From the NCBI RefSeq assembly GCF_025993755.1, contig NZ_JAMQHN010000028.1, positions 1 through 32,497 on the forward strand: a stretch of 32,497 nucleotides of DNA, in the 5' to 3' direction. Of this stretch, positions 5,728 to 32,497 are shown piece by piece. Under the pieces are notes generated by a model that made no database searches, had not been told where the DNA came from, and saw only the letters and a program-made list of their open reading frames with translations. A program made the translations under genes and the position numbers. Source of the stretch: Thermomonas sp. GTDB lineage: Bacteria; Pseudomonadota; Gammaproteobacteria; Xanthomonadales; Xanthomonadaceae. The stretch's first letter is position 1; every line of letters begins with the position of its first letter.

Positions 5728-6813
5728 GTGACCCTTGCCGAACGCATCCCAGACCGCAGCCATCCCCTTCCCCGGGCCGAGGCTGGGATGCGTCCGGTGC
5801 GGATTTCCGAAGTGCCGGTGCGCCGTGGCGGTGTCGATGCCGTGCTCGCGACGCGCCATGCCGGTGCCAGGCGCCTGCGCCTGAACTATGAACTCGTCGG
5901 GCCGGAAGAGGCGCCGGTGGTATTCGTCGCCGGCGGCATTTCGGCCCATCGCCATGTCGCCGCCAATCCGCTCGAATCCGAACCGGGCTGGGCGCAAGGC
6001 CTGCTGGATCCGGGACGCACGCTGGATCCGTCGCGGCTGCGCGTGCTGGCCTTCGATTACGTCGGCGCCGATGGCGGCATCGATGCGCCGATCGATACCG
6101 CCGACCAGGCCGATGCGGTTGCGTTGCTGCTCGATGCGCTCGGCATCGAGGCGCTGGCCAGCTGGGTTGGCTATTCCTATGGCGCGCTGGTGGGCCTGCA
6201 GTTCGCGGCGCGCCATCCATCGCGCTTGCGCCGGCTGGTCGCGGTCAGCGGCACGCATCGGGCGCATCCCTACGCGGCCGCGTGGCGCGCGCTGCAACGC
6301 AAGGCGGTGGCGCTGGGCAGGCTGCAGTGCGCCGACGCCCAGGGGCTGTCGCTGGCGCGCCAGTTCGCCATGCTCAGCTATCGCACGCCCGAGGAATTCG
6401 GCGAACGCTTCGATGCGCCGCCGGAAATCTGCAACGGGCATGTGCGGGTGGCGGCCGAGGATTATCTCGATGCCGCCGGTGCGAAGTTCGTTGCGCGGGT
6501 GGGGGAAACGGCATGGCTGCGACTGTCGGAATCGATCGACCTGCACCGGGTGGATCCGGCCGGGGTTTGCGTGCCGACGACGGTGGTCGCGGTCGAGGGC
6601 GACCGGCTGGTGCCGATGTCGGACGCCGTGGCGCTGATCGAAGGACTGGGCACGCGCGGGCGGCTGCGCGTGCTGCGCTCGCCGTACGGGCATGACGCGT
6701 TCCTGAAGGAAACCGATCGCGTCGATGCGCTGCTGGCGACGGAACTGTTCGGTTCCGGCGGGAAATTCCAGTTCGTTGCGCGAACGCGCGCGCATTCGGG
6801 AGACGTGGCATGA
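5728..6813 (+). CDS. metX: Homoserine O-acyltransferase (probably succinyl), MetX type
   Basis: A 361-residue alpha/beta-hydrolase-fold enzyme that activates homoserine at its hydroxyl for methionine synthesis. The nucleophile elbow GYSYGALVG carries Ser150. Asp292 (VEGDRLVP) and His322 (YGHDAF) complete the triad. GTG at 5728 is taken as the start because GGAG lies 7 bases upstream and the riboswitch ends at 5640; the ATG at 5788 (MRPVRISEV) is a shorter alternative. The frame open before 5728 crosses the riboswitch and is not coding. Xanthomonadaceae enzymes of this type are described as succinyltransferases, but the acyl donor cannot be read from the visible motifs. The stop overlaps the metB start (ATGA), and the operon appears to be S-adenosylmethionine-controlled. 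Confidence 0.88.
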   Translation: MTLAERIPDRSHPLPRAEAGMRPVRISEVPVRRGGVDAVLATRHAGARRLRLNYELVGPEEAPVVFVAGGISAHRHVAANPLESEPGWAQGLLDPGRTLDPSRLRVLAFDYVGADGGIDAPIDTADQADAVALLLDALGIEALASWVGYSYGALVGLQFAARHPSRLRRLVAVSGTHRAHPYAAAWRALQRKAVALGRLQCADAQGLSLARQFAMLSYRTPEEFGERFDAPPEICNGHVRVAAEDYLDAAGAKFVARVGETAWLRLSESIDLHRVDPAGVCVPTTVVAVEGDRLVPMSDAVALIEGLGTRGRLRVLRSPYGHDAFLKETDRVDALLATELFGSGGKFQFVARTRAHSGDVA

Positions 6814-9139: not shown

Positions 9140-11329
9140 TCAGGCGGTGACCGCGAAGAATTCGGCGATCGGCTGCGGGCGCTGGAAGTAATACCCTTGC
9201 GCGTAGTCCACCCCGATTCCGCGCAACAGGTCGAGTTGCTGCTCGGTTTCCACCTGCTCGCCGACCGCGCGCATGTCGAGCAGGTGGGCGATTTCGGTGA
9301 TCGACCGAACCACCGCCTCGGACAGGCCGGGCTGATCGATGCCGCGCACGAAGCTGCCGTCGATCTTCAGGTAGTCCACTTGGAGGTTGCGCAGATAGCT
9401 GAAAGAGCAGAATCCGGTGCCGAAATCGTCGAGCGCGAAGCGGCAGCCGAGGTCGCGCATCTGGGCGATGAAGCGGCGGGTGCGGGTCATGTCGCGCACC
9501 ACGCTGGTTTCGGTGATCTCCACGCAAACCTGGTCGGCGCGCAGCGCGCTGCGGCGCAGACGGTGCGCGAGGTAGTTGCCGAAGTCCTCGTCCGCCAGGG
9601 TGGCGGCGCCGAGGTTGAGGTTGCACTGCTGGATTCCGGTCGCGGCTTCGGGGTGTTGTTCCACCCAGGCCAGCAGGCTGCCGAGGATGCTGCGATCCAG
9701 CCGTGGGCCGAGCTGGTAGCGCTCTGCCGCCGCGATGAGTTCCGCCGGCGGACGCACCTGGCCGTCGCGGTCGCGCCAGCGCATCAACAGCTCGAAATGG
9801 GATTGCGCCGGCTGCGGTGCGTGCAGGTTGATGATCGGCTGGCACCACAGCTCGAAGCGGCCCTCGTCCAGAACTTCGCGCGCGATCAGCGCGCTGCGCA
9901 TCTGGCGGGTACGCAGCTCCAGGCTCTCCGCATTCGATTCGGTCAGGAACAGGCGGTTGCCGCCCTGCTCCTTGGCTGCGTGGCAGGCGGTGTCGGCCTG
10001 CGAAAGCAGTTCGTCGTAGGCGACGTGGGGCGGCTGGCTGGTGGCGATGCCGATGCTGGCGCTGGTGCCCAGATTCTGCCCCTGCCACGCCACCCGTGTC
10101 GCCTCGATCGAAGCCAGCAGCCGATTGCAGCGCACGCTGGTCGTGGGGGCATCGCCGGCGGTGAGCACGGTGAACTCATCCCCGCTGGAATGTGCGATCA
10201 GGTCGTCGTCGGTGAACTCCGCGCGAACAAGAGCGGCGATATGGCGCAGCATCTCGTCGCCGGCCGCGTGGCTGGCGGATTCGTTGATCATCTTGAAGTT
10301 GTCGAGATCGATGTACACCAGACACAGGTGCGGCTCATTCTTCGCCAGCCGCGCGCGCGCGCGCTCCTCGAAGGCGAATCGGTTGAGCAGATCGGTCAAT
10401 GGATCCTGGGTGGCGCGGATGCGCAGCGCCTCCGCCGCGAGGGTGCGCTCCCGGAAAGCCACCGCCATCAGCATCGGAATCACCGAGTTGACCACCAGCG
10501 AGCCCATCATCATCGAGGTGTCGTGCAGCGTTTCCGGGCGCGGCAGCCCCCAGAGCCCGAGGCCCAGGGTGAGCGCCATCAACAACGTCACGCCCATGGT
10601 GGAAAACGCGGTGAACTGCGGCGGGAAACGGGCCGCCGACCACAACAGCAGGGCCAGCGGCAGCACCGAGATCGCCAGCGGGTACATGCTGCCCTTGTCA
10701 ATCAACCAGATGCCACCCGCCAGAACCAGGATCATGAGCGCTGTCCACAGCACGCGTTCACGCAGGCGGATCCTGATCGCATTGCCTGCGTCGGGCCTGT
10801 ACAGGCGGTTGCCCATGCCGAACAAAAGAAGGAAATTCGGCGTGGTTGCCGTGATGCCGAGCAGGTTGCTCAGCGACCACTGCAGGAAGGCGCGCGGCAT
10901 GGCCTCGGGCGGCACCATGCCGGCGTGCAGCATCCCCAGGGTGCCGATGCCGGCGCTGAGCAGGCTCATCGCGAGGCCGCCGCGAAGCAGCAGCAGGCCG
11001 TCCTGGATGCGGAACTGCAGATGGGCTTTCCGGCTGTGCACGTACAACCAGGCCAGCACGACGGCGATGAAGTCGGCGCCGAGCGAATAGGGAATGAACA
11101 GCGTCGGCACCGGATTGAACGTCAGGTGCAGCAGCAGCTGGCCCAGCGGTACTGCGAATGCGTAGCGCAGGCCGTAGCGCAGGACGAAGGCCAGTCCGAT
11201 GCCGGCCGCGGGCCAGAACAGCACCACGTCCGACGGCGTCCTCAGGAACAACACGGTGACCGCCGCGCCGGCGTAGTAAAGGCCGGTGAGCAGCGCGAAG
11301 CGGAGGATCCCCGGAAATGCTCCGTGCAT
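9140..11329 (-). CDS. MASE1-GGDEF-EAL cyclic-di-GMP signalling protein
   Basis: A 729-residue inner-membrane protein. Residues 1 to about 290 are a multi-pass MASE1-like sensor with a FWPAAGIGLAFVLRYG stretch. A GGDEF domain follows; its signature is SGDEF at 382-386, and no RxxD inhibitory site is visible upstream. An EAL domain ends the protein, with ELLMR (Glu513) in place of EALLR. CNLNL, EITETS, DDFGTGF, YLKIDG, GEQVET and YAQGYYF supply the expected metal and substrate residues. The phosphodiesterase half therefore looks intact. The cyclase half may be active or only GTP-binding. The ligand is unknown. It lies downstream of sdaA on the same strand, 90 bases away. Confidence 0.9.
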   Translation of the reverse strand: MHGAFPGILRFALLTGLYYAGAAVTVLFLRTPSDVVLFWPAAGIGLAFVLRYGLRYAFAVPLGQLLLHLTFNPVPTLFIPYSLGADFIAVVLAWLYVHSRKAHLQFRIQDGLLLLRGGLAMSLLSAGIGTLGMLHAGMVPPEAMPRAFLQWSLSNLLGITATTPNFLLLFGMGNRLYRPDAGNAIRIRLRERVLWTALMILVLAGGIWLIDKGSMYPLAISVLPLALLLWSAARFPPQFTAFSTMGVTLLMALTLGLGLWGLPRPETLHDTSMMMGSLVVNSVIPMLMAVAFRERTLAAEALRIRATQDPLTDLLNRFAFEERARARLAKNEPHLCLVYIDLDNFKMINESASHAAGDEMLRHIAALVRAEFTDDDLIAHSSGDEFTVLTAGDAPTTSVRCNRLLASIEATRVAWQGQNLGTSASIGIATSQPPHVAYDELLSQADTACHAAKEQGGNRLFLTESNAESLELRTRQMRSALIAREVLDEGRFELWCQPIINLHAPQPAQSHFELLMRWRDRDGQVRPPAELIAAAERYQLGPRLDRSILGSLLAWVEQHPEAATGIQQCNLNLGAATLADEDFGNYLAHRLRRSALRADQVCVEITETSVVRDMTRTRRFIAQMRDLGCRFALDDFGTGFCSFSYLRNLQVDYLKIDGSFVRGIDQPGLSEAVVRSITEIAHLLDMRAVGEQVETEQQLDLLRGIGVDYAQGYYFQRPQPIAEFFAVTA

Positions 11330-31579: not shown

Positions 31580-31972
31580 TCAACCACCGACCCGCAGTGC
31601 CGCCGACACCATCAGCGCGATGACGCAAACGAAGCCGCCGAGCCAGCACAGGCTGCGCAGCGCCTGCTGGACGGTGACGTAGAAGACCCCGTGCAGGATG
31701 CGGAAGGCGACGAAGGCCATCGCCAGCCACGCCACCCGCTGCGGATCGACCTGGGTGAACTGCGCCATCAGCACCGCCGCGGCGAACGCCGGGAACGCCT
31801 CGAAGGCGTTCAGATGTGCGCTGTACGCGTTGCGTACCTTGTAGTTGTCCTGCCGGGCGATCCAGCCGCGCGGATCCTTGTTGTTGTAGCCGGGGGCGGC
31901 GCGCTTGGCGATTACCGCCCACAGATAGGGCAGGCAGGCAGCGATGAGGATGCACCAGTAGGCGATGGTCAT
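31580..31972 (-). CDS. MAPEG family membrane protein
   Basis: A 130-residue protein with four predicted helices (AYWCILIAACLPYLWAVI at the front, FAAAVLMAQF, AWLAMAFVAFRILHGVFYV and the final FVCVIALMVSAAL). The family hallmark is RQDNYKVRNAYSAHLNAFEAFPAFAA, with the Arg-Asn-Ala-His-x-Asn arrangement. MAPEG proteins in animals are glutathione-dependent enzymes of eicosanoid metabolism; bacterial members are mostly uncharacterised. It is the first gene of the minus-strand set, with non-coding DNA upstream. No distinct promoter could be picked out with confidence. Confidence 0.9.
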   Translation of the reverse strand: MTIAYWCILIAACLPYLWAVIAKRAAPGYNNKDPRGWIARQDNYKVRNAYSAHLNAFEAFPAFAAAVLMAQFTQVDPQRVAWLAMAFVAFRILHGVFYVTVQQALRSLCWLGGFVCVIALMVSAALRVGG

Positions 31973-32108
31973 GGGGAGGAATCCGCAGGAAGTCCAACCC
32001 GGAGTCTAGTGCAAGATGGTGCGCTTGCTGTGTGCGCTTTGGGCAGGGAGGTGGGGCGGACTGGAACGAAATACCGATGCGAATCCGAGGTTCGGGTCTT
32101 CTCAGAAT

Positions 32109-32286
32109 CTGATTAGCCCTATCCCTCAGCTCGTCATTCCCGCGAAGGCGGGAATCCAGCGCCTTTTGCGCCTTGGCCAGAGCAAGGTCAGAAGCCATGT
32201 CACTGAATTTCCGCCAGAAGCATGCGGAAATGACGAGCCGGAGCCATTCTTCCTCGATTTGCCGGCTGAGACTTGGGGCTAATCAG
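32109..32286. repeat. MITE-like element with 22-base inverted ends
   Basis: The ends are CTGATTAGCCC (32109-32119) and its exact complement (32276-32286). The match resumes five bases further in with CTCAGC, so 18 of 22 end positions agree. The body is non-coding and encloses the REPIN-like pair of palindromes. No target-site duplication is obvious. A small non-autonomous mobile element is the best guess. It occupies half of the 351-base stretch without genes between the MAPEG gene and the CRISPR array. Confidence 0.5.
32129..32237. repeat. REPIN-like inverted pair of REP sequences
   Basis: Unit one (32129-32159) opens GCTCGTCATTCCCGC and folds on a GCGGGAAT stem. Unit two (32203-32237) is the same motif inverted and slightly diverged, ending GCGGAAATGACGAGC. 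The two lie 43 bases apart. The CGTCATTCCCGCGAAGGCGG wording is a well-known extragenic palindrome in many proteobacteria. Such pairs are spread by RAYT transposases; none is in the window. Confidence 0.7.
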
Positions 32287-32323: not shown

Positions 32324-32497
32324 GCTTCAATAAGGCCGCAGCGAATTCGCTGCGGAAACCCACCGGCCTGCGCCGTACCCCGTGCAATTTGCGCTCGCTT
32401 CAATAAGGCCGCAGCGAATTCGCTGCGGAAACTGCCGATCTGGTGGAAGTGGCCTTTCTTCGCGAGGCCCGCTTCAATAAGGCCGCAGCGAATTCGC
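32324..32497 (-). CRISPR. CRISPR array edge, running off the right end of the window
   Basis: Two identical 36-base repeats lie at 32324-32359 and 32397-32432, and the first 27 bases of a third at 32471-32497. The spacers are 37 (32360-32396) and 38 (32433-32470) bases and unrelated to each other. In plus orientation the repeat starts GCTTCAATAAGG and ends GCGGAAAC. Its core CCGCAGCGAATTCGCTGCGG is a perfect palindrome that gives the crRNA stem. On the minus strand it ends ATTGAAGC, close to the ATTGAAA(C/G) handle of many type I and III systems, so minus-strand transcription is likelier. That would put the leader outside to the right and make this the older end. No cas gene is visible, so the type cannot be set. 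Confidence 0.93.

What the first reader, a model, noticed from the sequence alone, without database searches (positions are those of the whole stretch)
32324..32497. CRISPR array cut by the window border, with cas genes out of view
Perfectly conserved 36-base repeats and 37-38-base spacers show an intact array. Spacers of this length are longer than in I-E or I-F arrays and would suit type III or several other type I systems. The repeat's minus-strand end ATTGAAGC suggests the direction of transcription. No cas gene exists within 32 kb to the left, so the locus, if not orphan, extends right.
Basis: partly seen in the sequence, partly recalled or inferred. Interest (0 to 1): 0.75.

Follow-up and report, generated by a model that had tools for sequence, protein, structure and literature searches.

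The report
CRISPR array end; toxin-armed Cas3 nearby
The repeats at the window's edge are the tail of an ordinary bacterial anti-virus memory array, but the DNA-cutting protein that serves it carries a toxin-like domain whose probable antidote is written out of frame inside the same gene, a design that recurs in distantly related bacteria.

Summary
The array is real. The window is a whole contig (C13) that ends inside a repeat. The array continues on contig C14: 35 exact repeats behind a complete type I-G cas operon. C14's error-rich last 55 bases fit the repeat plus the window's first spacer, and the two genes flanking the locus are neighbours in 22 of 24 other genomes of the genus, so the window holds the leader-distal end of one array. 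Four of 37 spacers resemble phage genes, three of them beside a TT-type PAM. That much is ordinary. The striking part is its Cas3. It has a C-terminal Fic (AMP-transferase) domain, and the stretch between HD and Fic encodes, in the +1 frame, a conserved 69-aa protein with the class I Fic-inhibitor motif (S/T)xxxE(G/N). Cas3 and Fic share one ORF in 31 of 79 Fic-selected loci from several phyla. The +1 frame is the conserved one, yet the Cas3-Fic frame stays open through it in 28 of 28 counted loci with Cas3 upstream, against 9 of 20 others. The same pair sits on restriction-type methylases in three loci. I propose a toxin-antitoxin module built into Cas3, probably for growth arrest when immunity fails. 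Activity is untested; ten paper searches found no description.

The parts
32324..32359 (-). CRISPR repeat, full 36-base copy, last of the array (leader-distal)
32360..32396 (-). Spacer of 37 bases, the oldest position of the array; target not found (its 20-mer has no exact match in viral contigs)
32397..32432 (-). CRISPR repeat, full 36-base copy
32433..32470 (-). Spacer of 38 bases; resembles a phage DNA primase gene (29/38 in Stenotrophomonas phage S1, 32/38 and 31/38 in two viral contigs); its first 19 bases also fit the error-rich end of contig C14
32471..32497 (-). Partial repeat, 27 of 36 bases, cut by the end of contig C13; the array continues on C14
31974..32323 (.). Leader-distal flank of the array: end of the inserted island, lying between the array and the conserved flanking gene
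   Evidence: homology to 7 empty sites begins at about 31974 (32009 in one, G212)
31580..31972 (-). Flanking gene (130 aa, MAPEG-like by recall, no family search made) that in 22 of 24 other genus genomes directly follows the peptidase gene found upstream of cas3 on C14

Best explanation
The window's end is the leader-distal end of a type I-G CRISPR array of about 38 repeats and 37 spacers (join inferred), split by an assembly break. It belongs to an island (cas3-csx17-csb1-csb2-cas4/1-cas2-array) inserted between two genes that are adjacent in the rest of the genus. It should work as type I-G does: Csb2 cuts pre-crRNA at the repeat, Cascade finds phage DNA beside a TTN PAM, and Cas3 degrades it. 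What is unusual is that this Cas3 gene is a dual-coding toxin-antitoxin unit. A class I-like Fic toxin domain is fused to the C-terminus of Cas3, and the short antitoxin gene that precedes such a Fic gene elsewhere survives in the +1 frame inside the HD-Fic linker. SHOWN by sequence: the fused frame, the nested conserved ORF, its Fic-inhibitor motif, its +1-frame conservation, and the open Cas3-Fic frame. INFERRED: the small protein binds Fic and keeps it off; since Cas3 is reported as a stable part of type I-G Cascade, the toxin rides on the surveillance complex; when a phage shuts down gene expression or disables the complex, the small antitoxin is lost first, Fic AMPylates a host target (gyrase or topoisomerase IV by analogy) and the cell stops growing before the phage spreads.
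For: Array and type. Join: C14 end fits repeat + window spacer (30/36 + 14/19); flanking genes adjacent in 22 of 24 other genus genomes; empty sites. Targets and PAM. Fic domain in Cas3: PF02661 44.6 bits, cut-off 24; one ORF with Cas3 in 31 of 79 Fic-seeded loci; motif HPFxDFNGRx(T/S)R in 8 Cas3-fused proteins and 1 stand-alone of 12 examined. Nested ORF:: +1 frame identity 0.536 against 0.360 and 0.350; ATG at a fixed place in 26 of 28; SD-like string in 18 of 26 against 0.119 at random. None of the 12 proteins has (S/T)xxxE(G/N) in the Fic frame, so the only such motif nearby is in the +1 frame. Frame kept open: 28 of 28 against 9 of 20, 30 of 32 fused with the 2 exceptions broken inside Fic. 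Same pair on methylases. Cas3 stable in I-G Cascade: PMC9638904, passages. Class I Fic logic and gyrase as target: PMC13327609, passages.
Against: No expression or activity data. The nested protein matches no Pfam or NCBIfam family above cut-off and no solved antitoxin, so its role rests on motif, size and position. The Fic motif has Phe where the published signature has Gly. The last motif letter varies: S in L157 and L201, Q in L182, E in L203. 18 of 79 loci show no inhibitor motif by my pattern, one of them Cas3-fused (L203). 2 of 12 Cas3 or stand-alone pieces are Cas3 with a partial Fic (G350, G589), and 7 of 15 I-G regions read have no Fic at all, so it is optional. The C14-C13 join has 11 mismatches in 55 bases.
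Confidence: 0.58

Rival explanations
1. Plain type I-G locus: the Fic part is a passenger. A Fic-antitoxin pair landed behind cas3, and the shared frame has no function of its own; the pair works, if at all, as an ordinary addiction module that stabilises the cas genes.
For: Fic is absent from 7 of 15 I-G regions read; the same antitoxin-Fic pair occurs alone, away from cas genes, in many loci; T. sulfidiphilus has two separate toxin-antitoxin systems in its I-G locus (PMC9638904, passage).
Against: The Cas3-Fic frame is open through the antitoxin gene in 28 of 28 counted loci with Cas3 upstream against 9 of 20 others, where synonymous shuffling expects 4.6 of 28. A passenger would not keep the frame open.
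Confidence: 0.25
2. The Fic domain is a working part of Cas3 (for example modifying phage or host proteins during interference), and the +1 ORF is not an antitoxin but a leftover or a structural constraint on the linker.
For: No sequence match of the small protein to known antitoxins.
Against: The +1 frame, not the linker frame, is the conserved one; it starts at a fixed ATG, carries S and E of the inhibitor motif in 20 of 20 aligned sequences, and precedes stand-alone Fic genes as well.
Confidence: 0.11
3. C13 and C14 carry two separate arrays with the same repeat; the window's array is a second one whose continuation is unknown.
For: The two contigs do not overlap exactly: 11 of 55 positions differ at the C14 end.
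Against: The C14 end fits the window's spacer in register (14/19, the only 19-mer of 64,958 in the window to reach that; other 35 spacers at most 9/19), and the flanking genes are neighbours in 22 of 24 other genus genomes.
Confidence: 0.06

Closest known systems
Type I-G (formerly I-U) CRISPR-Cas, as studied in Thioalkalivibrio sulfidiphilus (PMC9638904, passages read)
   Same: Cas3g, Csx17/Cas8g, Csb1/Cas7, Csb2, Cas4/1 fusion and Cas2; 36-nt repeat; 8-nt handle; TTN-type PAM.
   Different: Here Cas3 carries a C-terminal Fic domain over a nested +1 ORF. The passages read describe separate toxin-antitoxin genes between csb2 and cas4/1 in T. sulfidiphilus and no Fic on Cas3.
Class I Fic toxin-antitoxin pairs (VbhT-VbhA, FicT-FicA, Fic-1-AntF; PMC13327609, passages read)
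   Same: Fic domain plus a separate small protein with (S/T)xxxE(G/N), encoded next to each other.
   Different: Here the toxin is a domain of Cas3 (or of a methylase) and the antitoxin is read out of frame inside the fused gene; no sequence similarity of the small protein to solved antitoxins.
Fic/DOC genes in type I cas loci (PMC3936711, passage read)
   Same: Reports ten Fic/DOC genes in cas loci, type I where the genome is known, one in Geobacter sulfurreducens beside an antitoxin gene.
   Different: The passage and its figure legend describe separate proteins (Fic alone or with a RhuM domain), not a Cas3 fusion or a nested antitoxin.
PADLOC candidate PDC-S04 and the anti-phage Fic protein SoFic (PMC12249575, abstract and passages read)
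   Same: The Cas3 Fic part matches PDC-S04 (E 1.4e-20); SoFic shows that a Fic protein can act by abortive infection.
   Different: SoFic is class II with the inhibitor in the same chain and stands alone; here Fic is fused to a nuclease and the motif lies in another frame.
Doc toxins in restriction-type defence operons (PMC3506569, passage read)
   Same: Already in 2012 Doc domains were noted beside nucleases and helicases of defence operons and read as coupling of immunity and dormancy.
   Different: Separate genes in other systems; no Cas3 fusion in the passages seen.

Membership tests
Type I-G CRISPR-Cas | Cas3g, Cas8g/Csx17, Cas7g/Csb1, Csb2, fused Cas4/Cas1 and Cas2 in one locus | tested here: met
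   6 of 6 proteins pass NCBIfam cut-offs: TIGR02621, TIGR04113, TIGR02570, TIGR02165, NF049935, TIGR01573
Type I-G CRISPR-Cas | 36-nt repeat giving an 8-nt 5' handle 4 nt past a hairpin | tested here: met
   fold of the repeat, against PMC9638904 passages; cleavage itself not tested
Type I-G CRISPR-Cas | TTN PAM 5' of the protospacer | tested here: inconclusive
   TTC, TTC, TTC and CTT beside imperfect matches of three spacers in four genomes; no TTN beside the window spacer's matches
Class I Fic toxin-antitoxin module | Fic signature HxFx(D/E)GNGRxxR | tested here: inconclusive
   HPFTDFNGRTTR: catalytic H, D, N, G, R, R kept, one Gly is Phe; Fic model passes its Pfam cut-off
Class I Fic toxin-antitoxin module | Inhibitory motif (S/T)xxxE(G/N) on a separate small protein | tested here: met
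   SMAFEG in the +1 ORF C14:74516-74725; S and E in 20 of 20, G in 19 of 20 aligned; no such motif in the Fic frame of 12 proteins
Class I Fic toxin-antitoxin module | Sequence relationship of the small protein to VbhA, FicA or AntF | tested here: not met
   no antitoxin among 7 weak PDB matches up to E 10; nothing above cut-off in Pfam or NCBIfam. Hence described as class I-like, not filed as a member
Class I Fic toxin-antitoxin module | Toxicity of Fic and its neutralisation by the small protein | not testable with these tools
   needs expression in a laboratory strain

The most novel reading that the evidence does not exclude
Type I-G Cas3 has taken up a whole toxin-antitoxin module: the Fic toxin became its C-terminal domain while the antitoxin gene survives as an overprinted +1 ORF inside the linker, so one stretch of DNA encodes both the tether of the toxin and its antidote. 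The same pair was captured separately by restriction-type methylases, so this would be a general way of arming DNA-attacking defence proteins with a growth-arrest warhead that goes off when the defence is overwhelmed.
Probability: 0.6. Interest if true: 0.85.

Novelty: new variant of a known kind. Interest (0 to 1): 0.72.

Why it matters
Coupling of CRISPR immunity to dormancy or suicide has been proposed for years, mostly from genes that lie side by side. Here the coupling would be physical: a toxin domain on Cas3, which is reported to be a stable part of type I-G Cascade, with its probable antidote overprinted in the same gene. That makes the idea directly testable in laboratory E. coli with genes of cultured Thiocapsa strains. 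It would also be an unusual toxin-antitoxin pair whose antitoxin is read out of frame inside a fused effector gene, recurring on a second class of defence enzyme. Practically, anyone moving such a type I-G system into another host should know that the linker is probably a gene.

Tried and rejected
Type III or other type I: rejected, the cas genes are I-G. Orphan array: unlikely. Self-targeting: outside the arrays, no match of either window spacer at E <= 0.001 and none of the C14 array in G000 at E <= 1e-4, but one search scored only 2 of 52 first-look candidates, so this is weak. Phage and plasmid collections with the C14 array: best E 0.06, mostly one low-complexity spacer, not counted as targets. 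Plasmid search with the window spacer: E about 1 or worse, dropped. In one search the G151 hit (low-complexity spacer) was not aligned, nor the second G194 hit to spacer 8. Sigma-70 promoter in the leader: 0 found. A strict pattern for the linker letters matched only G000; the conservation turned out to lie in the +1 frame. A fixed partner gene beside stand-alone Fic genes: gene layouts of 14 loci were listed and no common neighbour stood out, but no family search was made on them. Known antitoxin families for the nested protein: none. Papers: ten searches of an open-access library; nine papers opened, by passages only or abstract and passages; none seen describes a Cas3-Fic fusion. The other listed papers were seen as listings only.

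Full report
1. The observation. The window ends in two exact 36-base repeats and 27 bases of a third, with spacers of 37 and 38 bases. The window is the whole of contig C13 of its genome (207 contigs, 2.53% contamination). The repeat occurs 35 more times, exactly, in C14:82584-85074, and nowhere else at up to 3 mismatches. Cas1 was found once, on C14.

2. The rest of the locus. C14 carries, in one direction, cas3 (1073 aa as listed from a GTG), csx17, csb1, csb2, a cas4/cas1 fusion and cas2, then a 213-bp leader (63% GC) and the array; the contig ends at 85,167. Six of six proteins pass an NCBIfam cut-off, five of them for type I-G models and Cas2 for the general one. PADLOC agrees for all six; Pfam for four, with no match for csx17 and csb2.

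3. One array, cut by the assembly. The last 55 bases of C14 fit the repeat (30/36) followed by the first 19 bases of the window's spacer 32433-32470 (14/19). None of the other 35 spacers tested exceeds 9/19, and no other 19-mer of the window, both strands, reaches 14. The mismatches look like a low-quality read end (inference). Independently, the peptidase gene that precedes cas3 on C14 and the small gene that flanks the array on C13 lie 48-123 bp apart (distance between match ends), in the same orientation, in 22 of the 24 other genomes of the genus; in the remaining two, one of the genes gave no hit. Aligned to 7 of these empty sites, homology stops at C14:71467-71481 on one side and begins at window 31974-31977 (32009 in G212) on the other. 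None of 16 other genus genomes has a Cas3g match, with two best candidates scored per genome. So the window holds the leader-distal end of an array of about 38 repeats and 37 spacers (35-39 nt, one of 23), part of an island absent from its relatives.

4. How the array should work. Read on the minus strand, the repeat is 4 nt, an 8-bp hairpin with a 4-nt loop, CCUU, then AUUGAAGC. This is the geometry reported for Csb2: cleavage 4 nt past the hairpin, 8-nt handle (PMC9638904, passages). A search of 297 family genomes with the C14 array gave protospacer-like matches for three spacers: spacer 12, 37/38 at the start of a tape-measure gene (G183, same genus); spacer 18, 33/36 and 32/36 in RecE-like exonuclease genes (G019, G194; PHROGs run on the first only); spacer 8, 32/35 in a terminase gene (G178). 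The three bases 5' of them are TTC, TTC, TTC and CTT. The published I-G PAM is TTN (PMC9638904, passage). Window spacer 32433-32470 matches the primase gene of phage S1 at 29/38 (E 0.1) and two viral contigs at 32/38 and 31/38. These contigs were found with a pattern made from the spacer's own reading frame, so part of that agreement is built in. No TTN lies beside these.

5. Cas3 with a Fic domain. Residues 921-1022 of this Cas3 match Fic (PF02661, 44.6 bits, cut-off 24), after helicase and HD domains. Of 12 proteins examined, 8 Cas3-fused and 1 stand-alone have the motif HPFxDFNGRx(T/S)R; G350, G589 and a stand-alone G386 piece lack it. In 31 of the 79, Cas3 parts and Fic share one open frame: 28 helicase-HD-Fic, two HD-Fic cut by contig ends, one (L209) with Fic in front of a divergent Cas3; csx17 was detected beside or in frame with 29 of the 31. 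By record titles they come from Gammaproteobacteria (with cultured Thiocapsa roseopersicina DSM 217 and T. marina 5811), Rubrivivax, Acidobacteriota, Verrucomicrobiota, Rhodothermales, a Desulfocapsa and a cyanobacterial bin. Nearly all are metagenome bins, so single placements may be wrong. The scan was seeded on Fic and says nothing on frequency. In the class search 21 of 369 genomes matched. I read the regions of 15 of these 21 (14 fetched, and G000): 6 have the full Fic motif, 2 a partial Fic, 7 none.

6. A hidden small gene. The linker between HD and Fic reads, in the +1 frame, as a conserved protein. In G000 it is C14:74516-74725, 69 aa, with ...RKVARSMAFEGEPVDQAMLEAE.... SMAFEG fits (S/T)xxxE(G/N), the inhibitory motif which in class I Fic systems sits on a separate small antitoxin (PMC13327609, passages). 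In the Fic frame none of 12 proteins has such a motif. In 28 loci, over 50 codons, mean pairwise identity is 0.536 in the +1 frame, 0.360 in the Cas3-Fic frame and 0.350 in the third frame, which has 36 stops against 0 and 0. The third codon position of the +1 frame varies most (0.518 against 0.648 and 0.661), as expected if the +1 frame is the one under selection. An ATG lies at codon -35 or -32 from the motif in 26 of 28 loci (not L172, L193), with a Shine-Dalgarno-like string upstream in 18 of the 26 against 0.119 at random places. In 20 aligned sequences S and E are invariant and G is kept in 19.

7. Both frames are kept. If only the small gene mattered, synonymous drift should close the Cas3-Fic frame: shuffles expect 4.6 of 28 loci open. 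That set was chosen as fusions, so I counted all 32 loci with Cas3 directly upstream: 30 are fused, and the other two (L184, L216) are open through the linker and broken inside Fic. In one search, among 51 loci with the motif in the +1 frame, the Fic frame is open through it in 28 of 28 with Cas3 upstream, 3 of 3 with a methylase upstream and 9 of 20 others (28/0 against 9/11, Fisher p 7e-6; inflated by common descent, and some of the nine look like relics of fusions). The other 28 loci were not counted: 3 without Fic motif, 18 without inhibitor motif by my pattern, 6 with it in another frame, 1 truncated. One of the 18, the fusion L203, reads SMAMEE in the +1 frame.

8. The same pair elsewhere. 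In L200, L201 and L213 the Fic follows an Eco57I/TaqI_C-type methylase; PADLOC scores the two tested, L201 and L213, as DrmMI or type IIG. The small ORF is again in the +1 frame, in L201 with SMAFES. In a 76-row Fic tree, 29 of 31 Cas3 fusions fall in a 39-row branch (SH-aLRT 91, below the 95 mark) that also holds ten separate Fic genes, six near cas genes; L172 and L193 lie apart. One or a few captures by Cas3g and a separate one by methylases are likely, with modest support.

9. Mechanism. Shown: fused frame, nested ORF, motif, dual-frame conservation. Inferred: inhibition by the small protein, release on phage attack, AMPylation of gyrase or topoisomerase IV by analogy with Fic-1 (PMC13327609), growth arrest. 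PMC9638904 states that Cas3 appears to be a stable component of type I-G Cascade without target DNA (passage), which would tether the toxin to the surveillance complex. Against: no activity data, no sequence match to known antitoxins, one altered letter in the Fic motif, no structure model, and Fic absent from about half of the I-G regions read.

10. Novelty. Array and operon are ordinary type I-G. Fic/DOC genes in type I cas loci were reported in 2013 (PMC3936711, passage). I saw no account of a Cas3-Fic fusion or an overprinted antitoxin in ten searches of an open-access library; subscription papers and supplements were not searched. I rate it a new variant of a known kind.

Noticed in passing
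L133:10356-10862 (+), L088:7591-8217 (-), L137 about 9903-10657: In three I-G loci without Fic (G451, G031, G615) the slot between cas3 and csx17 holds a nucleotidyltransferase-like ORF (AbiEii above its Pfam cut-off in G451 only; G615 judged by eye), and csx17 has an N-terminal extension in G451 and G031 (827 and 794 aa against 749). The cas3-csx17 junction may be a docking place for different toxin-antitoxin pairs.
   Followed up: partly
G000 C14:84327-84421 (L041, spacers 25 and 26): Spacer 25 is only 23 nt and equals the first 23 nt of spacer 26, which goes on with GTTTCC, the start of the repeat: it looks like a 59-bp tandem duplication through a 6-base match, real or from assembly.
   Followed up: no
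window 32109-32286: Imperfect 22-base inverted repeats enclose a stretch next to the array's far end, with a dispersed palindromic element (about 32129-32166) that recurs on other contigs; it looks like a small mobile or REP-type element.
   Followed up: no
L091 (G095), L092 (G027), L095 (G073), L132 (G350): I-G loci with fragments of one Cas3g beside a second, divergent Cas3 (about 28-30% identical helicase), in G027 and G073 also with a split csb2; in G095 Fic is fused in front of the second Cas3. They suggest replacement of interference modules.
   Followed up: partly
L150 (G056), 5737-6594: A Fic gene with no cas gene detected nearby still matches the end of the Cas3 HD domain at its start (query 795-1070) and keeps the +1 ORF: probably the relic of a lost Cas3-Fic gene.
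   Followed up: partly
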